Virus record (IMG/VR): IMGVR_UViG_3300005548_000005
Coordinates: 1-41,685 of that record
DNA from: a virus
DNA: 41,685 nt
Strand: one strand, 5' to 3'
Position 1 is the stretch's first letter. Each line of letters opens with the position of its first letter. Of this stretch, positions 18,543 to 34,917 are shown piece by piece. Below the pieces are notes generated by a model, which was not told the DNA's origin, ran no database searches, and saw only the letters and a program-made list of their open reading frames with translations. The translations under genes were made by a program, and so were the position numbers.

Positions 18543-18746
18543 TCACGAGTCATCTCGGAAGGGGTCGCCGATGATGGCGCGAAGGCGCTCAGCTGTGACC
18601 GGGCGCCCGTCGAACCGGATGGTCGCCCAGCGTCGGCGCGACGGCACGAAGCGATCCCACCAGCGCAATCGCCGCCACGCATTCCTGCGTTCGCGTCGTC
18701 CGCGACTGTGAGCAGCCAGCCATGAACGGGCAGGGGTGGTGGTCAT
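18543..18746 (-). CDS. Small basic protein at the head of the late operon
   Basis: A 67-residue protein from ATG (MTTTPARSWL) with a strong GGAGG six bases upstream. It is very rich in Arg and Trp (RRERRNAWRRLRWWDRF) and ends TAERLRAIIGDPFRDDS. A longer open frame exists upstream, but the SD selects this ATG. Basic, aromatic composition suggests nucleic-acid binding. No family recognised. As the first leftward gene before HNH/TerS it may act in packaging or late control. Confidence 0.6.
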   Translation of the reverse strand: MTTTPARSWLAAHSRGRRERRNAWRRLRWWDRFVPSRRRWATIRFDGRPVTAERLRAIIGDPFRDDS

Positions 18747-19202
18747 GCGGAACCTCCGGGGTCGGGCGCGCGACCGCGTCAAGGCGGGAAGCCTGCTGGA
18801 GCGACACGGGCGCGCGGGTCGTGGAACGTGGCCGGCCCTCAGCACTCGCTGGCGCCTGGCGGCGAACCGAGGTCAATCAGCAACAGCCGCGCTGGTGGGT
18901 CCAGGGCGAGAGGGCCGGGCCACGTGAGGTGCTGCGCGAGTCCCCCGAGCCGCATGACACAGGCGGCCCGCGCAGCGGCGGGGTGTCCGGCCCGCGCGGC
19001 TCCCAGCTGACGACGAGATCGGCGTGGGTCGCGGGTTGCGCCTGCGTGCTCGAGCAGGCCGGACAGCAGAAACCCCGAGCACCTGTGAAGCGGGCTCGGG
19101 GTAGTCGAGTGGGGACTGTGCCTGAAGGGTGACGTATGAGCGTGGGTCGAGGCAACGACCGGCGTCGGTGTGTCGCAAGTGGGGGGTGGGTCGGAAGTCG
19201 TG
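18747..19202. other. Long noncoding region between the two divergent units
   Basis: This is the longest stretch without a convincing gene. It contains the SD for the leftward small gene, a CTCGAG-centred palindrome (19047-19056), a terminator-like hairpin (19072-19102), and a 26-codon open frame from 19137 that I do not accept as a gene. A late promoter is expected here, but no good -10/-35 pair is visible, so late transcription may need a phage activator. Confidence 0.5.
19072..19102. terminator. Terminator-like hairpin
   Basis: ACCCCGAGC (19072-19080) pairs perfectly with GCTCGGGGT (19094-19102) over a 13-base loop. There is no real T-tract on either side, so termination would be weak or factor-dependent. 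It could separate the HicA-like promoter from leftward late transcription, or be structural. Confidence 0.4.
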
Positions 19203-19221
19203 AGGTTTCACTGTGAAACCT
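19203..19221. promoter_or_regulatory. parS-like palindrome
   Basis: AGGTTTCAC-T-GTGAAACCT is a perfect 9+9 palindrome with one central base. Its core GTTTCAC...GTGAAAC equals the two half-sites of the canonical chromosomal ParB site, with one extra base in the middle. It directly abuts the -35 of the HicA-like promoter. The phage encodes two ParB-like proteins, so it may be their site, or an operator for the local HTH protein. Confidence 0.5.
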
Positions 19222-19262
19222 TGTCAGTTGACAAGGGATGCGGTAGCATTGCACTTGTCAAC
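19220..19262 (+). promoter_or_regulatory. Promoter with CTTGTCA operator boxes for the HicA-like operon
   Basis: A likely promoter is TTGTCA (19222-19227), 16-base spacer, TAGCAT (19244-19249). Three copies of one box surround it: CTTGTCA at 19220-19226, its inverse TGACAAG at 19229-19235, and CTTGTCAAC at 19254-19262. The last two form a perfect 9-base inverted repeat around the -10. This fits autorepression by the HTH partner, as in most toxin-antitoxin operons. An AGGAGGTGA SD follows. Confidence 0.65.
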
Positions 19263-19281
19263 GAGAGGAGGTGAAGGCAAG

Positions 19282-19479
19282 ATGGACAAGGATCTGAAGA
19301 AGATCGTCAAGGCGCTCAAGGCCCAGGGCTACGAGACCGAGATGACCCGGAAGGGACACCTGATGGTGTACCGCGACGGTCACCTGGTCGCCGTTCTCCC
19401 CGGCAACGTGGGCGACTGGCGGGCCCTGAAGAACGCGATCGCTGCGCTCCGACGGGTCGGGTTCCGGTGGCCGCCCTAG
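19282..19479 (+). CDS. HicA-like toxin
   Basis: A 65-residue protein with the HicA dsRBD-like plan: N-terminal helix (LKKIVKALKAQGYE), then beta strands with the KGHLMVYRDGHLVAVLPG core, whose Gly-His pair matches the GSH active region of HicA mRNA interferases, then a C-terminal helix (ALKNAIAALRRVGF). ATG with perfect AGGAGGTGA. It would cut or bind translated mRNA. It is one of only six or so rightward genes and has its own promoter, typical of a self-contained module. Confidence 0.68.
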   Translation: MDKDLKKIVKALKAQGYETEMTRKGHLMVYRDGHLVAVLPGNVGDWRALKNAIAALRRVGFRWPP

Positions 19480-19491
19480 GCCGACGGACAA

Positions 19492-19550
19492 GAGGACCGG
19501 GGCGCGGAAATCGCCCCGGTCCTCGGGACCCAGTGTGACCCGAGGACCGG
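19492..19550 (+). promoter_or_regulatory. Mutually exclusive hairpins between toxin-like and HTH genes
   Basis: Arm 1 GAGGACCGGGGCG (19492-19504) pairs with arm 2 CGCCCCGGTCCTC (19512-19524), 13 perfect pairs. Most of arm 2 also pairs with arm 3: CCGGTCCTCGGG (19516-19527) with CCCGAGGACCGG (19539-19550), 12 perfect pairs. Both cannot form together. The SD of the HTH gene starts four bases after arm 3. A ribosome finishing the toxin-like gene would cover arm 1 and favour the 2:3 form. There is no T-tract, so translational control is more likely than termination. Confidence 0.6.
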
Positions 19551-19566
19551 ACGAAAGGAAGAAGCC

Positions 19567-20034
19567 ATGCAGATGTACCACGCGAACGTCGAGGTCGACG
19601 ACCGCACACCGATCACCCGCGACAACTCCACCGAGGTCGACGCCTGGATGGAGGTGCTGCGCCAGTACCACGGATCCCCGGGCACCAGCATCCGCGGGTT
19701 CCGTGAGGCCGGCCTGTACGTGCCCGCCGAGAACCTCGCCCAGGCGACGACGTCGGCGACCGCGATCGTGAGCTCGCTGTTCGGCGCCGAGGCGATCGCC
19801 ATCGAGATCATGACCGAGAAGGAGTTCGACACCCGCGAGGGCTGGATGCCGATGCCCGAGATCGTGTCGGTCAGCGAGGCCGCCGAGCTGCTCGGCGTCA
19901 CCCGGCAGGCGGTGCAGGACCGGATCCGGCGCGGCACGCTGCAGGCCGAGAAGGTCGGCGACACCTACGTGATCCCGCGCGGCCAGCTCCCGGCGCAGCT
20001 GCTCGACTCGAACCCGGAGCCCGCCGACAAGTGA
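19567..20034 (+). CDS. HTH protein, probable antitoxin partner of the HicA-like gene
   Basis: A 155-residue protein. Residues about 1-95 form an unrecognised alpha/beta domain (YHANVEVDDRTPITRDNS, then ATTSATAIVSSLFG). Residues about 98-145 are an excisionase/MerR-type HTH (EIVSVSEAAELLGVTRQAV, then RRGTLQAEKVGDTYVIPRGQL). AAAGGAAG SD. HicB antitoxins combine an RNase-H-like domain and a DNA-binding end; this has the same plan but the N-domain is not clearly HicB. It likely neutralises the toxin and represses the promoter. Pairing is inferred from operon structure. Confidence 0.6.
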   Translation: MQMYHANVEVDDRTPITRDNSTEVDAWMEVLRQYHGSPGTSIRGFREAGLYVPAENLAQATTSATAIVSSLFGAEAIAIEIMTEKEFDTREGWMPMPEIVSVSEAAELLGVTRQAVQDRIRRGTLQAEKVGDTYVIPRGQLPAQLLDSNPEPADK

Positions 20035-20050
20035 TGGTGCGGTTGCCCGG

Positions 20051-20578
20051 CTACCTGGATACGAAGAGGCCGCCCACTGCCGCTGGGTTGGTCGCCCTCA
20101 GGCGGTCGATCTGGTCGTCGAGTGTCTGCATGTAGCGGGTCAGCTCCTCGACCAGGAGGCCAGGGTCGGTGTCTTCGTACCGTCGGGGGTTCGTGACCTC
20201 GCGCCCGAAGTAACCCTGCGCCGAGTCGACCAGGTCACGGAGCCTCGGCAGGACGTCGGCCGGCATGAGCGAGAGCTCGCGCTGGCAGAGTTCAACGTTT
20301 CGTTCCCACCTGGTGGGGGTGATCTCCTCCCAGCTCCAGAAGTCCCTGAGCCTCTCGGCGGTGCCTCTGTGCGCCATGAGGGTGAGCAGCTGGTCTGTCG
20401 GCTCGAGGTTGCCGCGGAGGCTCTCGAGCACCTGCTCAGTGTTCTCGTTCGCCCGCTTGGTCCCACGTCCGGCGATCCACGCGGCGTAGACGGCCGCCCC
20501 GCCGGTGAGCGCGGTGAACACCACCAGCGCGTAGTCCACCCAGTCCCGGTGGAGCTCGACCTCGGTCACGAGAAGCAC
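20051..20578 (-). CDS. Single-pass membrane protein of unknown function
   Basis: A 175-residue protein with one N-terminal membrane segment (about residues 16-37: ALVVFTALTGGAAVYAAWIAG) and a charged cytoplasmic helical domain containing FWSWEEITPTRWERNV. Starts at GTG 20578, or at GTG 20569 three codons later. No SD, and a 13-base gap from the gene upstream. Last gene of the early unit, convergent with the HTH gene with only 16 bases between stops. Possible exclusion or regulatory role, unproven. Confidence 0.55.
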   Translation of the reverse strand: MLLVTEVELHRDWVDYALVVFTALTGGAAVYAAWIAGRGTKRANENTEQVLESLRGNLEPTDQLLTLMAHRGTAERLRDFWSWEEITPTRWERNVELCQRELSLMPADVLPRLRDLVDSAQGYFGREVTNPRRYEDTDPGLLVEELTRYMQTLDDQIDRLRATNPAAVGGLFVSR

Positions 20579-21027: not shown

Positions 21028-21566
21028 CGGCGCGCCTTCGGGTCGCCACCCGGGTCGTCGACCAGGTCGACGTGGATGAAGGCGCCTGGTCGCTGGTTGG
21101 CGTACCGGTGCTCGACGGTGAGGCGGACGACCAGGGAGTCGTCGCGGTAGATGCCGGCCTCCTTGAGGCCGTCGAGGGTGGAGCGGACGAGCTTGTCGAC
21201 GTCGGGCGTGGTGGTGACGTACAGGGGGGCTGTGGGCTTCAGGACGCCGGCGTTGCGACCGGTCCCGAAGTGCGACCGCGGCCGCGGCGAGTAGAACCGT
21301 GCCTGGACGTGCACGGGCCCCACGATCGGCGTCCACCACTCGCCGGGCTCGCGGCCGATGTTGTGGTGGTTCAGGATCGTCAGGGCGTCGGCGATCACGC
21401 TGTTGCGCCATGGTCGTACGCCGGCGCTCGACTCCTTCATGCCGGCGCGGCCGTTCTTGCGGACGAAGGCCTTCTTCGAGCCCTGGGGCGCCGGCGTGCC
21501 GGTCACGTCGATCGAGATCCGTTCGCCGGCGCTGACGATGTCGGCGGTGGGCTCAATCGCCATCAC
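21024..21566 (-). CDS. RusA-like Holliday-junction resolvase
   Basis: A 180-residue protein (from GTG 21566; ATG 21563 is equally possible). It carries the RusA signature: Asp122 and Asp124 in PDVDKLVRSTLDGL, then Asp132, and the YRDDSLV pair at 142-143, the acidic residues that hold the catalytic metal. N-terminal GTPAPQGSKK matches the basic loop of the family. It would resolve recombination branches before packaging, and is the clearest DNA-processing enzyme in the early unit. Confidence 0.85.
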   Translation of the reverse strand: MMAIEPTADIVSAGERISIDVTGTPAPQGSKKAFVRKNGRAGMKESSAGVRPWRNSVIADALTILNHHNIGREPGEWWTPIVGPVHVQARFYSPRPRSHFGTGRNAGVLKPTAPLYVTTTPDVDKLVRSTLDGLKEAGIYRDDSLVVRLTVEHRYANQRPGAFIHVDLVDDPGGDPKARR

Positions 21567-23329
21567 AGGAACAGCACCGAGGCAGCCACGACGCGTCCCT
21601 GCTGGGGGTAGTCGATCAGGCCGAGGGAGCGGAGGGCACCGAGGTTGTTCGTGTAGGCGCTGCTCGAGGGTGAGGCGCCGGCGAGGTCCGCGAGCTCGGT
21701 GCGGTCGAGGTCGTCGGGGTAGGCGGCGATCAGTTGCTCGAGGAGGCGCCAGCGCACGGGCGACACGAGGTGGCGGATCCGCTCGTGGAGCTCAGCATCC
21801 GACGCCGGCGCGGAGACCTCGGTGGCGTGAGCCCGGCCGTCCTCGGTGATGCGGACGAGGCCCGAGCTGGGGTAGTCGATCAGGCCGGCGGTCCGGAGGG
21901 CGCCGAGGTTGTTGGTGAACGAGCTGCTCTTGTGCGAGGCACCGGCGAACACCGCGAGTTGCGCCCTGGGGGCTTCAGGTACGCCGATCGACTCGAGCTC
22001 GACGAGAGCGTTGAGCAGCTTGCGGCGAGCCGGTGGCACGTCGCTGGTGGAGGCCTCAGCGCGCGGCCTGGACGATGGTTCGCCACCGGGTCGGGCAGAG
22101 GGTCGCCTGGCTCCGCCTGAGGCCTGTCGACTGGCGGATTCGACGCCGTGGGACTCTCCGGTGTCAGACGCCGCGCGCTGAGGGGTCTTGGTGCGTCCCG
22201 GGGCTGCCCAGGACTTCGAGTCGCGCAGGACGGCCAGGGCACCGCCGAGGCTGGCGAGCCCGTGGCTCAACGGCGCGAGCAGGTCCTCGAGTCGACCGGC
22301 TAGGTCGGGGTCGAGGACGGGCACCTCGACGAGCTGGGGCTCGGCCGTGGGTGCCGGCTTGGCGCGCTCAGCTGCGAGCTCGCGCTCGAGGTCGGCGATC
22401 CGGCGGCGCAGGGCCTTCGGGTTGTCGGCTTGGGCGCGTTCGACGGTGGCGGTGATCTGGGCGCCGAGCTCGTCGAGGTCGACCTTGGTCAGCCGCTGGG
22501 GCACGATCCGCTTCTGCCCGGGCTTGGGGGTCGCGGAGGAGTCGAACGTCGTGCGCGGCCGTATCCTGATACGCCGCAGCAGGTCGAGCCACCCAGGCGA
22601 CCACACCCAGGCGGTGCCGACCGGCAGCGACGGCAGCGACTTCTTGACCTCGGCGGCCTGGTCCTCGACGTCGTGCAGCTTGACCCACTCGTCGATCGCG
22701 GCGACGTCGCGAACCCCGGTCATGCCGAGGGCGATGAGGACCTCGGCCTGGGTGAGGACGTCCTTGTGGAGGGTGGCCGGCCGTTGGGTGATCAGGGTGA
22801 CGCCGAGACCGCGGGCGCGGCCGCGGCGCACCAGGTCCTCCATGGCACCGAGGAGCCGGAGGCCGTCACCCTGGGCGCGCTGGGGTGCAAACGCGTCGGC
22901 CTCGTCGACGATCACGTGCAAGGGCATGCGGTTGCGGTGGTAGAGCTGCTCCAGGAACGGGGCCATGAACTTCCGCGACGCGGTCTTCGACATCGCCGAC
23001 AGGTCGATCACGGCCGGCATGCGCTGGTCGACGAGGACCTGGGCGATCAGCTCGCCGGCGGTGGGCTCGAGCGGGACGTCGGCGTGGTCGCCCCCGAAGA
23101 TCACCACAGGCAACCCGTCGCCCTTGGCGTCCGCCGATGATCGCAGTCCCCACCAGACGCCGACGGGGTCGATGATCACGACCGGTTGGCCGGCGGCGAT
23201 CATCTCCTCGGCCATCACCACCCCGGTGGACGTCTTGCCCTTCCCGCGCTTGGCCACGATCGCGAACGTCTCGGTGACCGCCTCGAGCGGCAGGGAGAGC
23301 TCGGTGGAGATCCTCAGCTGGGCGCTCAC
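21563..23329 (-). CDS. HerA/FtsK-like ATPase with two winged-helix repeats
   Basis: A 588-residue protein. Walker A is AKRGKGKTS (27-35), Walker B VIVDEAD (139-145), with an arginine/TQRPATLHKDVL sensor-like segment, as in HerA/DUF87 DNA-pumping ATPases. A Pro-rich linker follows. Two homologous winged helices end the protein, each with a (F/Y)TNNLGALRxxGLIDYP core (about 449-512 and 525-588). It probably translocates or remodels DNA. A role with the phage ParB proteins is a guess. GTG start, coupled to the upstream gene. Confidence 0.75.
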   Translation of the reverse strand: MSAQLRISTELSLPLEAVTETFAIVAKRGKGKTSTGVVMAEEMIAAGQPVVIIDPVGVWWGLRSSADAKGDGLPVVIFGGDHADVPLEPTAGELIAQVLVDQRMPAVIDLSAMSKTASRKFMAPFLEQLYHRNRMPLHVIVDEADAFAPQRAQGDGLRLLGAMEDLVRRGRARGLGVTLITQRPATLHKDVLTQAEVLIALGMTGVRDVAAIDEWVKLHDVEDQAAEVKKSLPSLPVGTAWVWSPGWLDLLRRIRIRPRTTFDSSATPKPGQKRIVPQRLTKVDLDELGAQITATVERAQADNPKALRRRIADLERELAAERAKPAPTAEPQLVEVPVLDPDLAGRLEDLLAPLSHGLASLGGALAVLRDSKSWAAPGRTKTPQRAASDTGESHGVESASRQASGGARRPSARPGGEPSSRPRAEASTSDVPPARRKLLNALVELESIGVPEAPRAQLAVFAGASHKSSSFTNNLGALRTAGLIDYPSSGLVRITEDGRAHATEVSAPASDAELHERIRHLVSPVRWRLLEQLIAAYPDDLDRTELADLAGASPSSSAYTNNLGALRSLGLIDYPQQGRVVAASVLFL

Positions 23330-23475: not shown

Positions 23476-23846
23476 CACGCGCCCGCGCGCTCGTCGACGT
23501 ACCGGATCGGGACGTGGACCTTCTCGCCGAGCTCCTGGTGGTCGAGCCAGACCGCGAGGTATCCGGTGCTGGCGCTGTCGGGCGGCCAGTAGACGGTGGC
23601 TCGGTCGACCGGTGAGAAGGCCCGGCCCAGCCAGGCGATCGCGTCTCTGACGCCGGCACGCTCGGCGTACTGCTCGGTCCACCAGGTCTTCTCGTTGTTC
23701 GCGGCGATCAGGGCGCAGTGCCAGGGCTGCACCACTAGCGGGGGGTTACCGGACGGGTCGCCGATCTGGTCGCGTCGGGTGACGCGGATGTGAGCGGCGT
23801 ATGGGTCGGGTGTGACGTTGCCGGTCTGGGCGGGGATCTCGGTCAT
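23475..23846 (-). CDS. Hypothetical early protein
   Basis: A 123-residue mixed alpha/beta protein with tryptophan-rich core (PWHCALIAANNEKTWWTEQY) and a beta-rich end. ATG overlaps the ParB-like stop. I recognise no family. It sits between ParB-like and HerA-like genes in a coupled operon. Confidence 0.55.
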   Translation of the reverse strand: MTEIPAQTGNVTPDPYAAHIRVTRRDQIGDPSGNPPLVVQPWHCALIAANNEKTWWTEQYAERAGVRDAIAWLGRAFSPVDRATVYWPPDSASTGYLAVWLDHQELGEKVHVPIRYVDERAGA

Positions 23847-24886
23847 GCGGTTGCCTCGTCAGGCTCGATGTCAGGACCCGCGGACGAGGGACCGCTGGTG
23901 CGCGCCTCGTCCGGCTCGTCCGCGGGTGTCTGTGGGTGGCGCCGGCGCTCGAGCTTGGAGCGTTCGTCGGAGCGGATGCAGGCCTCCCAGCAGGAGCCGC
24001 AGCCGATGCCGCCGATTCGGCCGGCGGTCATCTTGGAGTGGCCCAGCTGGCGGCACAGGGTCTCGACGGCGGCCGCGAGCGGGTGGTCGAACGACAGGTG
24101 GGCGGCCGAGGACTTCCCCCAGGCGTTGGGCCGCTCCTTGCCGGAGTGGTGGCGTCCGAGCTGGGTGCCGCGGCCGATCGAGAGGGTGCCGTTGCGGATC
24201 GCGGCCTGCCGCTCCGGGGAGAGCTCGAGGAGCGCCAGGCGGCCGGAGACGTGGGACTGGGACTTCCCGACTCGGCGGGAGAGCTCGAGGTCGGAGATCT
24301 CCTCGCGGCCCTTGATCTTGGCCAGCGCCCGGGCCTCCTCGATCGGGTCGAGGTCCTCGCGCTGGGTGTTCTCCATGAACATGGCCACGAGGACGTCGTC
24401 GGCTCGGATCGCGGAGATGATCACCGGCACGGACTCGAGACCGGCCTGCAGGGCAGCGGCGCGGCGGCGGTGGCCCATGACGACCACCAGCTGGTCGCCG
24501 CGACGGCGGGCGACGATGGGCTGCAGCATCCCCATCCGACGGATCGAGTCCGCGAGCTCGGTGACGTCGCCGACCTGGTCGCGGACGTTGTCGGGGTCGG
24601 GGACTAGGCGGCGCAGCGGGACCTCGACGTACTCGTCGTCTTGGACCTGGCCGGTGTCGTGGGTGTGCTCGGTGGCCGCCTGGCTGCGGATCCGGGCTGC
24701 CGCGTCAGCCATGGCCTTCGAGCTGGGGAACCCGTTCGCGTCGGACAGGACGACGACCTCGTCGAAGGTGGCCCCGAACTCGGACGCGATCTGGGCGCGG
24801 GCCTCGCGTGGCCACCGGGCGTCCGCGAGGGCTTGCAGGATCTGGGCCTGGGTGCTCGGTGCGAGCTGGGCCCGGGTCGGGGTCAC
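23843..24886 (-). CDS. ParB-like protein (second copy)
   Basis: A 347-residue protein from a GTG overlapping the upstream stop; longer upstream frame overlaps a real gene and is not used. The ParB core has GHRRRAA (139-145) and ENTQREDLDPIEEA (172-185), the CTP-binding motifs, then an HTH (196-222; RRVGKSQSHVSGRLALLEL). The C-terminus has a Cys cluster (GIGCGSCWEAC) instead of a usual dimer domain. An N-terminal HTH-like region (TQAQILQAL) precedes. Likely binds a phage DNA site; no ParA partner is visible. Confidence 0.8.
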   Translation of the reverse strand: MTPTRAQLAPSTQAQILQALADARWPREARAQIASEFGATFDEVVVLSDANGFPSSKAMADAAARIRSQAATEHTHDTGQVQDDEYVEVPLRRLVPDPDNVRDQVGDVTELADSIRRMGMLQPIVARRRGDQLVVVMGHRRRAAALQAGLESVPVIISAIRADDVLVAMFMENTQREDLDPIEEARALAKIKGREEISDLELSRRVGKSQSHVSGRLALLELSPERQAAIRNGTLSIGRGTQLGRHHSGKERPNAWGKSSAAHLSFDHPLAAAVETLCRQLGHSKMTAGRIGGIGCGSCWEACIRSDERSKLERRRHPQTPADEPDEARTSGPSSAGPDIEPDEATA

Positions 24887-25215
24887 TGGACCGCTCCAGC
24901 CAGCGCGGCGGCCTCGTGGGCGCGGCGTCGGGAGCGGTGCGTCCGGCCTCCGAGTCGGCAGGCTCGACATGGCCGGTACGGCTTGCCGGCGACGACCCGG
25001 ATCTCCACGGTCTGGGCCGGCGCGACGTCGAGCGAGCCGCCGGCCTGGTGCCGGGCGTGCACGCGGGTCATGTACTCCTCGAGCACCAGCTGCGCCGTCG
25101 ACCCGGTCGAGGCCGCGGTGGCGACCAGGTGCGGCCGCAGGGCGCCGAGCCGGTCGGCAAGGTAGTCCAGGCAGGTCGAGCATCCGGAACTCGGGTGCGG
25201 AGGCTGGTGGGTCAT
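24883..25215 (-). CDS. Cys-rich small early protein
   Basis: A 110-residue protein with two CxxC pairs: CSTCLDYL near residue 12 and CRACRLGG near residue 84, a plausible split zinc site. The middle is helical. ATG start overlaps the upstream stop, with AAGAAGGAA upstream. No family recognised. Confidence 0.55.
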   Translation of the reverse strand: MTHQPPHPSSGCSTCLDYLADRLGALRPHLVATAASTGSTAQLVLEEYMTRVHARHQAGGSLDVAPAQTVEIRVVAGKPYRPCRACRLGGRTHRSRRRAHEAAALAGAVQ

Positions 25216-30122: not shown

Positions 30123-30628
30123 CAGCTCGCCTCCGACTCGAGGGAGGCCTGCCAGGCGAACGCGTCACCCAGCGGCGTGGAGGGGGCGATGTCGTCGCGC
30201 CAGTCGCAGTACGTCGTCCGGGCGCCGGTGCTGGTCCACAGCCAGGGGATGCCGGCGGTCTCGAGGAAGTCGGTGAGCCGGACGACCAGCCAGGCATGGA
30301 GGTCGATCACCGACGGCGACATCGGCAGGTGCCGGTACGGGGTGTCGAGGGTGATCAACGTGTACGCCGGCACACAGGACGGCAGGTGGACGAAGTCGCC
30401 GGGCGGGATGACCTGGCCGTTGGCGTTGATCTCGACGACGCTGGCCAGCAGGCCCTGGCCGCGGCCCGTGGCGTAGCTGACCCGGATCGGGCTGCCGTCG
30501 GCGTCGAAGGTGACGGCCTGGTCGATCTGGACCTCGGTGACGTCGGCGAGCACCATCCGCACCGCCGGCCCGAACAGGGCCTGCTGGGGGAGCGGCTTCA
30601 GTGCGGCGATCACCGTCGACGTCGTCAC
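30122..30628 (-). CDS. Hypothetical early protein
   Basis: A 168-residue alpha/beta protein. It contains FDADGSPIRVSYATGRGQG and DLHAWLVVRLTDFLETAGIPWLWTSTG, split over helix and strand. GTG in a GTGA overlap with the ParB-like gene. No family recognised. Coupling suggests it is made with ParB. Confidence 0.52.
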   Translation of the reverse strand: MTTSTVIAALKPLPQQALFGPAVRMVLADVTEVQIDQAVTFDADGSPIRVSYATGRGQGLLASVVEINANGQVIPPGDFVHLPSCVPAYTLITLDTPYRHLPMSPSVIDLHAWLVVRLTDFLETAGIPWLWTSTGARTTYCDWRDDIAPSTPLGDAFAWQASLESEAS

Positions 30629-32070
30629 GACGCCGCCTCCTCGGCGTCGGTGTCCGCGGCCTTCGGCTCGGCCACGGAGAGGGTTGCCTCCGCGCTGTCA
30701 CGGATCCCGATGTCCTGGGTGGTGAACGGATGTCCGAGCTGCTCGAGGAACCCGAAGTAGCGGGTGGTGAGGGTGGCGCCGACCTGGCTCTGGTCGTCCT
30801 GGCTTTCGGTGAGCTGCAGGAGCACCACCATCAGCAGCCGCACCAGCCGCCAGCCAGGCATCGTCGTGTAGGTGTCGAGGAAGGCCAGGTGCTTGGCGTC
30901 CTCCTCGTCATCCCAGTAGCCGAACCGGAACCGGTCGGCTACGTCGACGCCGGCGACATCGAAGTACAGGGCGGGGGCGTCGCCAGCTTCGCCGAAGATC
31001 CAGTCGGCCGCCGGCGGGAGCACGACGCGCAGCTGGTCGACCAGGAAGTCGGGGACCATGGCGCCCTCGGGGACCAGGTCGAGGACGGTCTGGGCGCGCA
31101 GGTTCTTGGCGATCGCCTTCTGCTCGCGCTCGGTCTCCCACATGGCTCGCCGCTCCGCGTCGGCCTGCTCGCGCTCGCGGTCGGCCTTGGACTTCTTGGT
31201 GGCGTGGATGCTGGTCGCGGTGCAGACGAGCGTGATCGTGTGGGTGCCGTCCCAGTCCTTGCTGATGACGTAGCCCAGGCAGCCGTCGTGCTCGCTGCGG
31301 GCGTCGTCGTAGGCGAGGTCGGCGTAGGAGGTGAGCCGGCCGAGCTGGTCGTCCTTGCGCTGCGCTTCCCAGATGTCGCGGGCGCCCTGCATGTCGTACT
31401 CGGTGACGCCGTCCTTGGTGAGGCGACCGATGACCTGGTCGTTGTGCTCACGGTTGGCCCGGATCCGCTTCTGCCTGTCGACCTCGCCGCGGAACGAGGG
31501 ACTGCCGGCGGCCTTGACCAGCGCGGTCTGTGCCTTGGGGTCGTCCTCGAAGGCGACGATCTCGAGGGCATCGCCGATGGTGAGCTGGCCGACGTGGATC
31601 GAGTCGCGGGTCTTCTTCGAGAGCTTGAGCAGCTTGAGGCGCTCGCGGATCGTGGAGACGGGCCGACCGGTCATCTTCGCGATGTCGCGCTGGGTGTGCT
31701 TCAGGTCGCGCAGCTGCTCGAAGGCCTCGGCCTCCTCCATCGGGGACAGGTCGACTCGGTGGACGTTCTCGACGACAGCGGCCTCGATCTGCTGGGCGTC
31801 GGTGGTCAGGTCAGTGCGGACGATCGCCGGCGTCGTCTTCTTCCGGGCCTTCTTCAGGCCGTCGAGTCGACGGTGTCCGGCGATGACGACGTACCCGCCG
31901 TCGGCTGCTGGGGCGACCACGATCGGCTGGATCAGACCCTGCCCCTTGATCGAGGCGACCATCTCGTCGTCGGCGACGACCTTGCGGCGTGGGTTGGCGG
32001 GATGGGGCTTGATGGTCTTGACCTCGAGCGCGGGCTCGAAGCTGGTGGTGGTGTCGGTGCTACTGGGCAT
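30625..32070 (-). CDS. ParB-like protein (first copy)
   Basis: A 481-residue protein with the ParB/Srx core: NPRR (26-29), GHRRLDGL (65-72), ENVHRVDLSPMEEA (101-114), then an HTH (124-150; DIAKMTGRPVSTIRERLKLLKL). The long C-terminal half (190-481) has a charged coiled stretch (KKSKADREREQADAERRA) and no known domain. ATG with GAGGT SD. ParB proteins are CTP switches that load at parS; without ParA this one may act in regulation or phage genome organisation. Confidence 0.82.
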   Translation of the reverse strand: MPSSTDTTTSFEPALEVKTIKPHPANPRRKVVADDEMVASIKGQGLIQPIVVAPAADGGYVVIAGHRRLDGLKKARKKTTPAIVRTDLTTDAQQIEAAVVENVHRVDLSPMEEAEAFEQLRDLKHTQRDIAKMTGRPVSTIRERLKLLKLSKKTRDSIHVGQLTIGDALEIVAFEDDPKAQTALVKAAGSPSFRGEVDRQKRIRANREHNDQVIGRLTKDGVTEYDMQGARDIWEAQRKDDQLGRLTSYADLAYDDARSEHDGCLGYVISKDWDGTHTITLVCTATSIHATKKSKADREREQADAERRAMWETEREQKAIAKNLRAQTVLDLVPEGAMVPDFLVDQLRVVLPPAADWIFGEAGDAPALYFDVAGVDVADRFRFGYWDDEEDAKHLAFLDTYTTMPGWRLVRLLMVVLLQLTESQDDQSQVGATLTTRYFGFLEQLGHPFTTQDIGIRDSAEATLSVAEPKAADTDAEEAAS

Positions 32071-33001: not shown

Positions 33002-33204
33002 CACGTACCACGCTCGATGCGCTCGACGTCCTCGAGGCGGTACCGGCGGTGACCCGAGGGGAGCTTGACCACGGGGAGGCGCCCGTCCCAGGTGCGCAGC
33101 GTCGAGGGGGAGATCCCGAGCCGACGGGCGACCTCGCGAGGAGTCAGCAGCGGCCGCGGCTCTGGTGCGGTAACTGCGGATCCATGCGATTTTCGCGGGC
33201 TCAT
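33001..33204 (-). CDS. MerR-type HTH protein, first early gene (Xis/Cro-like candidate)
   Basis: A 67-residue protein: LLTPREVARRLGISPSTLRTWDG is the HTH, then LPVVKLPSGHRRYRLEDVERI, the wing and a helix, as in excisionases and BldC-like regulators. It is transcribed divergently from the repressor, the place of Cro and Xis in similar phages. Its ATG has no SD and lies just after a TACGGT -10, so the mRNA is probably near leaderless. Confidence 0.72.
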   Translation of the reverse strand: MSPRKSHGSAVTAPEPRPLLTPREVARRLGISPSTLRTWDGRLPVVKLPSGHRRYRLEDVERIERGT

Positions 33205-33314: not shown

Positions 33315-33794
33315 ATGACGACTGAGGGCGCTCCGGCGGTACCGACCGCCGATGCGATCGTGGGCGAGAAGGTCTTCCACTGGATGTGGCGGATGAAGAT
33401 CTCGCAGACCGAGATGGCGAGGCACCTCGGGATCTCGCAGACCAATGTCAGCCGCCGACTTCGCGGCGAGACCGGCTGGACGATCGACGACATCATCACC
33501 GCGGCCCGTGTCCTACGGCTGTCGCCGGGCGACCTGCTCCCGGGCGACGACTACGAGGGTCGTCCGGGTGGTGGTGGTACTCAGTACGCCATCAGGGACT
33601 CGAACCCCGAACCCGCTGATTACGGATCAGCGGACGCCACGATCCTGCAGATGCCGCGTCGCCCGCGGCCGATCAGCGGCGAGCGGGCAGCGTCCACACA
33701 GACTGGCTGGGGGGCCACTGTGGTCCGCCTCGAGGCACGTTCCTCGAGGCGGACCACCACTTCTTCGGCCTGGTGCGACCAGGCCAGCTCGTGA
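33315..33794 (+). CDS. Immunity repressor, virus form (attP within gene)
   Basis: A 159-residue protein. Residues about 18-76 are a Cro/CI-type HTH (KISQTEMARHLGISQTNVSR, then TIDDIITAARVLRLSPGDLL). From residue 92 the reading frame runs through a tRNA-like attP core (AIRDSNPEPAD), so the last 57 residues (103-159) come from phage DNA beyond the core. Integration would replace that tail with host sequence, here probably an immediate stop after codon 102. The short form would be the active prophage repressor. No -LAA-like tag is visible on the virus form. Confidence 0.82.
   Translation: MTTEGAPAVPTADAIVGEKVFHWMWRMKISQTEMARHLGISQTNVSRRLRGETGWTIDDIITAARVLRLSPGDLLPGDDYEGRPGGGGTQYAIRDSNPEPADYGSADATILQMPRRPRPISGERAASTQTGWGATVVRLEARSSRRTTTSSAWCDQASS
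33587..33633 (+). other. attP core (tRNA 3'-half match) inside the repressor gene
   Basis: Reverse-complemented, 33587-33622 reads as a tRNA from position 37 to 71: anticodon-stem 3' arm TCAGC, variable loop GGGTT, T-arm CGGGG-TTCGAGT-CCCTG with correct pairing, and acceptor 3' strand ATGGCG. The anticodon loop itself is diverged (C at position 33), so it is not a working tRNA. CCGCTGAT and ATCAGCGG (33613-33633) form an inverted pair around TACGG, a plausible integrase core site. From memory it best fits actinobacterial tRNA-Lys. Confidence 0.78.
33720..33757 (+). terminator. Perfect 16-bp hairpin in the repressor tail
   Basis: Stem 33720-33735 pairs without mismatch to 33742-33757 around a six-base loop (cacgtt). 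The stem contains CTCGAGG/CCTCGAG. It is followed by CCACTTCTT, only partly T-rich. It lies beyond the attP core, between the truncated repressor and int, so it could stop repressor transcripts before int, or be an integrase/host-factor site. Confidence 0.55.
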
Positions 33795-33832
33795 CCGCAG
33801 TCCCCGCATCACCATCCCCCCAGGAGAACACC

Positions 33833-34024
33833 ATGACCGCCACCGCCCTCCGCCTGATCGACACCACCGCCACCACCCCCGAGCACGAGCAGACTCCCGT
33901 CGTCGACGCCGGTGTCGCGGCCGGCCTGATCCACACCTGGGCGGCGGTGCAGACCACGTTGCTCGAGCGGCAGATCCGCCGGTCCGGTGCGCTGCAGCGG
34001 TACGTCCGCGGCTCGGTGAAGTGA
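33833..34024 (+). CDS. Small protein between repressor and integrase
   Basis: A 63-residue protein from ATG with AGGAG eight bases upstream. The C-terminal half is helical and basic (AGLIHTWAAVQTTLLERQIRRSG). No family recognised. Its position between repressor and int suggests a lysogeny function, such as an integration co-factor. Confidence 0.55.
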   Translation: MTATALRLIDTTATTPEHEQTPVVDAGVAAGLIHTWAAVQTTLLERQIRRSGALQRYVRGSVK

Positions 34025-34098
34025 CGCGCCCGGGTCCACCTCGGGAAAGTCTCAACGTAACCTCAAGACCCGCTCTGGCGTTGGTAGGTCGATGCCCT

Positions 34099-34917
34099 AT
34101 GAACTCGACGGATCGGGCCGTTGAGAGCTGGGCCAGCTGGATGCGTGCCGCGGGGCGAGCCCCCGGCACGATCGCGTTACGAACGGGGCACGTCCGCAAG
34201 GTCTTCCGGGACCTGGGCGTGCAGCAGCTCAACGACGTCACGACCGAGCAGCTGGTCGAGTTCTTGGCCACGCAGCGATGGCGGCCGAACACGCGCCGCT
34301 CCTACCGGGCTTCCCTGCGGGTCTTCTACGACTGGGCCCGAGCCGCCGGCTACGTCGAGGCCTCGCCGGTCGAGCGGGTGCCGGCCCCGAAGATCCCGCG
34401 ATCGCGGCCGCGGCCGCTGCCCGAGGACAACTACCGGCTCGCGCTGCAGGTCGCCCGGTACGAGCCGGCGCTGCGGATCGCGATCCGCCTCGGTGGGCAG
34501 TGCGGTCTACGGCGCGCGGAGCTCTCCCGGGTCCACCGCGACGACGTCTTCGAGGACCTGATCGGGCATGCGCTGCGGGTGGTCGGGAAGGGGGGCCACG
34601 AACGGCTCGTGCCGCTGCCCGAGGACCTGGCCCACGATCTGCTCGCGCGGCCCCAGGGTTGGCTGTTCCCGTCGCCGCGGCTCCACGGTCGGCCGGCGAC
34701 ACCGCAGGCCGTGGGGCGGTGGATCTCGTCGCTCCTGGGGCCCGGGTTCACCACCCACTCGCTGCGGCACCGGTGCGGGACGATGGCGCTCGAGCACAAC
34801 GGCGGGAACCTCCGCGCTGTCCAGGAGCTCCTCGGCCACGCGAAGCCCGAGACCACTGCGATCTACACCCTGGTCCGGGAGGAGACGATCCGCGCCGCCA
34901 TGGAAGGTGCGGCTTGA
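34099..34917 (+). CDS. int: Tyrosine integrase
   Basis: A 272-residue protein. Residues about 5-92 are the SAM-like core-binding domain. The catalytic domain carries Arg138 (GLRRAEL), Lys164 (VGKGGHERLVPL), His220 and Arg223 (HSLR), His247 (LLGHAKPETT) and nucleophile Tyr256. There is no N-terminal arm-binding domain, so it is XerC-sized. It ends -MEGAA, a small-residue end like ssrA-type tags. It would recombine attP, 0.5 kb upstream, with a host tRNA gene. Confidence 0.93.
   Translation: MNSTDRAVESWASWMRAAGRAPGTIALRTGHVRKVFRDLGVQQLNDVTTEQLVEFLATQRWRPNTRRSYRASLRVFYDWARAAGYVEASPVERVPAPKIPRSRPRPLPEDNYRLALQVARYEPALRIAIRLGGQCGLRRAELSRVHRDDVFEDLIGHALRVVGKGGHERLVPLPEDLAHDLLARPQGWLFPSPRLHGRPATPQAVGRWISSLLGPGFTTHSLRHRCGTMALEHNGGNLRAVQELLGHAKPETTAIYTLVREETIRAAMEGAA

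What the first reader, a model, noticed from the sequence alone, without database searches (positions are those of the whole stretch)
19203..19221. parS-like palindrome in a phage with two ParB-like proteins
GTTTCAC-T-GTGAAAC equals chromosomal parS half-sites with one extra central base. Odd-length sites exist for the ParB relative KorB. The phage has two ParB-like proteins and no ParA. The site might load phage ParB, capture host ParB, or serve as an operator beside the toxin-like promoter.
Basis: partly seen in the sequence, partly recalled or inferred. Interest (0 to 1): 0.7.

Follow-up and report, generated by a model that had tools for sequence, protein, structure and literature searches.

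The report
Promoter palindrome, probably not parS
A perfect 19-base palindrome in a phage of high-GC bacteria looks like half of a chromosome-segregation site, but it sits on the promoter of a small toxin-like gene pair, is missing from the closest relatives, and is more likely an ordinary regulatory site than a centromere.

Summary
Both ParB-like proteins are confirmed; no ParA was found. The ParB reading is not supported. (1) Both phage ParBs lack R173, N178 and R204, parS-contacting residues that all 6 actinobacterial chromosomal ParBs examined keep. (2) The stretched 15-mer is absent from 148 actinobacterial genomes; normal parS occurs in 28 of a 40-genome sample. (3) A related phage with the same gene pair and two ParBs lacks the site, and three phages with 4-6 sites have no ParB_N protein. 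The palindrome abuts the -35 box of the only sigma-70-like promoter nearby, which drives a HicA-like gene and a winged-HTH partner. There another palindrome, CCTTGTCAGTTGACAAGG (19219-19236), is the conserved element: 20 of 27 loci, 0.06 in shuffles. The finding's palindrome is in none of the other 26 promoters and lies in the segment that diverged from the nearest relative. Best reading: a lineage-specific auxiliary operator of this toxin-antitoxin-like operon, bound by an unidentified dimeric regulator; a functionless dyad is the main rival. In passing: a conserved, covarying hairpin between the two genes.

The parts
19203..19221 (.). palindrome A (the finding), AGGTTTCAC-T-GTGAAACCT; lineage-specific, ends on the first base of the -35 box
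19219..19236 (.). palindrome B, CCTTGTCA-GT-TGACAAGG; conserved operator-like dyad over the -35 box, overlapping A by 3 bp
19221..19249 (+). sigma-70-like promoter TTGTCA-17-TAGCAT, the only one found in 18700-20100
19254..19262 (+). CTTGTCAAC, second copy of the B half-site near the expected transcription start, 33-34 bp after the first in 10 of 10 loci (of 27 read) that show two such copies
19282..19479 (+). HicA-like gene, 65 aa (phrog_2089); predicted alpha-beta3-alpha fold like HicA toxins
19492..19524 (+). intergenic hairpin, 13-bp stem and 7-nt loop, conserved between the two genes
19567..20034 (+). partner gene, 155 aa: N-terminal beta-alpha-beta-beta-alpha-beta domain plus HTH_17/Xis-like winged HTH; likely regulator of the operon
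23846..25183 (-). ParB-like protein 1 (ParB_N + HTH_ParB); lacks R173, N178, R204
30628..32070 (-). ParB-like protein 2 (ParB_N + HTH_ParB); lacks R173, N178, R204

Best explanation
Palindrome A is a lineage-specific auxiliary operator in the promoter of a self-contained, rightward toxin-antitoxin-like operon (HicA-like protein plus a winged-HTH partner) carried by a temperate phage of actinobacteria. Shown: A ends on the first base of the -35 box and overlaps by 3 bp a second palindrome, B, which covers the -35 and is conserved in the family. Inferred: the operon's own HTH protein represses the promoter through B and the second half-site near the start, as HicB antitoxins do; A, centred about 44 bp upstream of the expected start, is bound by a dimeric regulator other than ParB, which blocks or helps RNA polymerase at the same promoter. 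The resemblance to parS is convergence of a short half-site.
For: Only sigma-70-like promoter in 18700-20100, against 0.0 (sd 0.1) in shuffles. A perfect AT-rich dyad there is unlikely by chance (27 of 40,000 shuffles; 0 of 60). Palindrome B meets the test (TTG..CAA, 6 or more of 8 arm pairs) in 20 of 27 upstream regions, shuffle mean 0.058. The best match to A is 10 of 15 or fewer in the other 26, and A lacks the TTG/CAA core of B. In the nearest relative, L001, the flanking DNA is conserved and A itself is the diverged stretch. ParB residues, host genomes and the dissociation of site and ParB speak against ParB. Precedent: HicB binds inverted repeats at hicA promoters, two of them in Y. pestis (PMC11594946, passages).
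Against: No protein is shown to bind A. A is in none of the other 26 promoters, so there is no conservation to prove function. It is single-copy in the phage, and the exact 15-mer is in 0 of 148 related bacterial genomes, so neither a phage regulon nor a host regulon for it is visible. An exact match of both 7-bp half-sites to parS in a phage with two ParBs is an uncomfortable coincidence.
Confidence: 0.5

Rival explanations
1. A functionless dyad: A arose by drift in a rapidly changing stretch just upstream of the conserved promoter and binds nothing in particular.
For: Absent in all 26 other promoters; lies in the segment that diverged from the nearest relative while its flanks stayed; any perfect odd palindrome with arms of 9 or more is expected 0.55 times per window.
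Against: The 120 bp upstream rarely gives such a palindrome by shuffling (27 of 40,000), and it abuts the -35 box exactly.
Confidence: 0.22
2. A weaker second operator of the operon's own HTH protein, loaded cooperatively next to B.
For: A overlaps B by 3 bp; Y. pestis HicB3 uses two inverted repeats at its promoter (PMC11594946); aligned on TCA/TGA the half-sites share 4 of 7 positions (read).
Against: A lacks the TTG/CAA core that defines B across the family, and relatives manage without it.
Confidence: 0.13
3. An odd-length parS for one of the two phage ParBs: the ParB loads with CTP at A, slides, and silences the toxin promoter or organises the phage DNA.
For: Both proteins carry ParB_N and HTH_ParB with GHRR and EN..R motifs. 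Odd-length sites have a precedent: V. cholerae parS2 is a 15-bp inverted repeat (PMC3688505, passages). ParB-like VirB works on parS-like promoter sites (PMC10770331, passages).
Against: Both lack R173 (contacts G1 of GTTTCAC, PMC7383237), N178 and R204; G006, with two ParBs, has no such site, nor do G003 and G004 with one each; three phages with 4-6 sites have no ParB_N, and G010's is a methyltransferase fusion without HTH_ParB; single copy, no ParA found.
Confidence: 0.1
4. A host-ParB capture site: the prophage borrows the host partition complex, as SGI1 does with IncC ParB (PMC10954446, abstract and passages).
For: Both half-sites are those of chromosomal parS, and 6 of 6 actinobacterial ParBs examined keep the parS-reading residues.
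Against: The extra base breaks the CACGTG core reported as important (PMC4368675) and turns the half-sites by about a tenth of a turn; such stretched sites occur in 0 of 148 genomes of the class, against 28 of 40 for normal parS; the phage has an integrase, so less need of partition.
Confidence: 0.05

Closest known systems
hicAB operators (Y. pestis PhicA3 BS1/BS2; B. pseudomallei hicAB)
   Same: inverted repeats at the promoter of a hicA-first operon, read by the DNA-binding partner protein
   Different: here the partner has a winged HTH like BldC/Xis, not a shown HicB fold; palindrome A is not shown to be its site
chromosomal parS
   Same: half-sites GTTTCAC/GTGAAAC identical
   Different: one extra central base, no CACGTG core, single copy, no parA in the record, phage ParBs lack parS-contacting residues
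V. cholerae parS2 (15-bp site of ParB2)
   Same: odd-length inverted repeat of 15 bp
   Different: conserved half-site TGTAAA versus GTGAAAC; many copies, with its own ParB2
virS sites of the ParB-like regulator VirB
   Same: parS-like palindrome at a promoter, read by a ParB relative
   Different: VirB's HTH reads its site; the phage ParBs here lack the parS-reading residues

Membership tests
chromosomal parS | two GTTTCAC half-sites with an intact CACGTG core (normal spacing) | tested here: not met
   CACTGTG; no normal site at up to 3 mismatches
chromosomal parS | cognate ParB with parS-contacting residues, phage proteins | tested here: not met
   both lack R173, N178, R204 (residues from PMC7383237)
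chromosomal parS | ParA partner in the same element | tested here: not met
   no PF13614 match in the record; one model only
chromosomal parS | CTP-dependent ParB loading and spreading at the site | not testable with these tools
   needs purified proteins
odd-length ParB sites (V. cholerae parS2) | 15-bp inverted repeat | tested here: met
   GTTTCACTGTGAAAC, 15 bp (length from PMC3688505)
odd-length ParB sites (V. cholerae parS2) | half-site TGTAAA | tested here: not met
   half-site GTGAAAC
hicA-promoter operator | inverted repeat at or over the promoter of a hicA-like operon | tested here: met
   A abuts and B covers the -35 box
hicA-promoter operator | bound by the operon's antitoxin | not testable with these tools
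   B is conserved in 20 of 27 loci, A in none of the 26 others; binding not shown
HicA toxin | HicA fold | tested here: met
   model pLDDT 83; VIA-align Z 5.4, 5.2, 5.0 and 5.0 to four solved HicA chains, 54-60 residues aligned, a middling Z; Foldseek alone is weak (E 0.95 and 1.8 for two HicA-family chains)
HicA toxin | Pfam HicA_toxin above the gathering score | tested here: not met
   13.5 bits against 27
HicA toxin | conserved histidine | tested here: met
   His26 in 23 of 26 aligned sequences, window included; Arg in L117, L118, L121
HicB antitoxin | partial RNase H fold N-terminus | tested here: inconclusive
   N-domain is beta-alpha-beta-beta-alpha-beta; HicB not among the rows shown

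The most novel reading that the evidence does not exclude
A is a stretched (15-bp) ParB site that a phage or host ParB clamp uses to silence or time a prophage toxin operon, so that partition-type clamps regulate a toxin-antitoxin promoter directly.
Probability: 0.08. Interest if true: 0.7.

Novelty: new member of a known kind. Interest (0 to 1): 0.25.

Why it matters
It is mainly a caution: a short half-site equal to parS, in a phage with ParB-like genes, is not evidence of partition. Phages with several such stretched sites mostly lack ParB_N, and related phages with ParBs lack the sites. If a ParB did bind here, it would link partition clamps to toxin-antitoxin control. The side result, a conserved hairpin between the HicA-like gene and its partner in 24 of 28 loci, may be the more useful lead on how this family balances the two proteins.

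Tried and rejected
Rejected: even-spaced parS in the phage; several palindromes of one kind as a ParB site array: the only half-site dyad with 3 or more A/T of 6 shared by 3 or more of 6 related phage genomes is palindrome B; excisionase as the partner's main role, because a separate Xis-like gene lies next to the integrase at 33004-33204, although in 3 of 26 relatives an integrase lies just upstream of hicA. Led nowhere: distant DNA search of the locus in cultured phages (no match); loci for the partner protein alone (none); Rfam (no family at its gathering score); solved-structure sequence search for the HicA-like protein (nothing convincing); exact string of the stretched site in papers (0 papers, five variants); the A+B composite elsewhere in IMG/VR (0); Gordonia phage GEazy, a ParB relative, scanned over 30,140 of 46,728 bases for the site (0 at up to 3 mismatches). 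HicB was not among the structural rows shown, which excludes nothing.

Rows dropped before counts: L104, L107, L109, L115, L119, L120 repeat L001-L006; L128, L131, L132 are near-copies; L134 and L135 have no clear start; L111 has 3 bp upstream and enters only the hairpin counts. The ParB residue table holds 8 of 9 loci sought; L148, the second ParB of G006, missed the motif filter. In one search, 43 of 68 site-bearing contigs were searched for ParB_N (3 hits, G008, G010 and G047, two over the cut-off; G008 was not looked at further).

Full report
What is there. The window is a 41,685-base virus record, 70% GC, with an actinophage-like terminase, an integrase at 33445-34914 and two ParB-like proteins. 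The palindrome is real and exact, AGGTTTCAC-T-GTGAAACCT at 19203-19221, single-copy at up to 3 mismatches, with no normal parS.

Is it more than chance? A perfect odd palindrome with arms of 9 or more is expected about 0.55 times in a window of this make-up, but an AT-rich one was seen in 0 of 60 Markov sequences, and 27 of 40,000 shuffles of the 120 bp upstream of the gene gave any such palindrome with spacer 0-3. So a functional dyad is likely, not certain. For the exact agreement of both half-sites with parS I have no calculation that allows for all the operators a reader might have recognised.

Surroundings. The palindrome, called A here, ends on the first base of the -35 box of the only sigma-70-like promoter in 18700-20100. 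It overlaps by 3 bp a second perfect palindrome, B, CCTTGTCA-GT-TGACAAGG (19219-19236). The promoter drives a 65-aa protein (phrog_2089; relatives are named HicA-like toxin in several cultured-phage records) and a 155-aa HTH_17 protein. The 65-aa protein misses Pfam's HicA cut-off (13.5 against 27 bits), but its model (mean pLDDT 83) has the alpha-beta3-alpha order, and four of the nine best VIA-align rows are solved HicA toxins (Z 5.0-5.4); such Z values are middling. The partner's model (mean pLDDT 92) has a beta-alpha-beta-beta-alpha-beta N-domain and a winged HTH that aligns with BldC (Z 8.2) and mycobacteriophage Pukovnik Xis (Z 6.5).

What is conserved. Loci of the HicA-like family came from IMG/VR and GTDB genomes, 13 of 14 of them Actinobacteria by record title. 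In 27 upstream regions including the window's, palindrome B (TTG..CAA in an 18-mer with 6 or more of 8 arm pairs) is found in 20, against a shuffle mean of 0.058 and a maximum of 1; for L130 the hit counted is not at the -35 position. Palindrome A reaches 15 of 15 in the window only; elsewhere the best is 10. In the nearest relative, L001 (terminase 83% identical; HicA-like protein 74%), the DNA upstream of A is largely conserved and A is the part that differs. L105 has another perfect palindrome at about the same place. The stretch upstream of B thus changes quickly.

Is it a ParB site? The crystal study of Caulobacter ParB (PMC7383237, passages) names Q162, G170, K171, S172, R173, N178, G201 and R204 as parS contacts, R173 touching G1 of parS. 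In an alignment 6 of 6 chromosomal ParBs from actinobacterial genomes keep S172, R173, N178, G201 and R204; the window's ParB1 has Q173, G178, T204 and ParB2 has V173, E178, L204; two ParBs of related phages also lack R173, N178 and R204. Position numbers were mapped by me through the alignment. Across records, the stretched site and ParB do not travel together: G006 carries the same gene pair and two ParBs with HTH_ParB, and no site at up to 2 mismatches; G003 and G004 have one ParB_N protein each and no site. Of 43 site-bearing records searched, 3 have a ParB_N match, 2 over the cut-off. Records with many sites (G012 4, G015 5, G016 6) have none; G010 (8 sites) has one fused to a DNA methyltransferase without HTH_ParB. 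In bacteria the 15-mer occurs in 0 of 148 genomes of the class and in 0 of 12 genomes holding the family, while normal parS occurs in 28 of 40. A study in P. aeruginosa calls an intact CACGTG core important (PMC4368675, passage); A has CACTGTG.

For the ParB reading, told in full: odd-length ParB sites exist (V. cholerae parS2, 15 bp, PMC3688505, passages); ParB relatives can act at promoters (VirB, PMC10770331, passages); mobile elements can borrow a partition system through parS-like sites (SGI1, PMC10954446, abstract and passages). Specificity read from a few residues is not a binding test. I therefore keep about 0.15 in all for ParB of phage or host.

Most likely working. B and the second half-site at 19254 are the operators of the pair, read by the HTH partner (inferred from conservation and from HicB precedents, PMC11594946, passages). 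A is an extra operator of this lineage, placed where a bound dimer would touch or block RNA polymerase; its protein is unknown. That A does nothing is the main rival.

Side result. Right after the hicA stop codon lies a hairpin, 13-bp stem and 7-nt loop in the window (19492-19524). 24 of 28 loci have an uninterrupted stem of 12 or more pairs (G-U allowed) within 88 nt of the stop, against 147 of 5,600 random windows of the same loci. In 21 with a 7-nt loop (20 distinct), 10 of 12 pairs show changes on both sides; rows were chosen for a perfect stem, so the 100% pairing is by selection. In 5 of 28 the 5' arm core is repeated just before the partner's start codon, where it could pair with the 3' arm instead. 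No Rfam family reaches its gathering score there.

Noticed in passing
window 19492-19524 (and 19539-19550): Conserved, covarying hairpin between the HicA-like gene and its HTH partner (24 of 28 loci); in 5 of 28 its 5' arm core GAGGACCGG is repeated before the partner's ATG, allowing an alternative pairing over the ribosome-binding region.
   Followed up: partly
L084-L092 (G015, G016, G010), L093 (G012): Phages with 4-8 scattered GTTTCACNGTGAAAC sites (up to 2 mismatches) and no ParB with HTH_ParB found; what reads them is unknown.
   Followed up: partly
window 33004-33204 (-): Small Xis-like protein next to the integrase (phrog_66), a likelier excisionase than the partner at 19567-20034.
   Followed up: no
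window 19060-19200 against L001: About 100 bp of DNA upstream of the promoter is strongly conserved with the nearest relative; no function found.
   Followed up: no
window 21566-23329 (-): HerA/FtsK-like ATPase near the ParB genes; Gordonia phage GEazy also has a ParB-like gene near an FtsK-like translocase.
   Followed up: no
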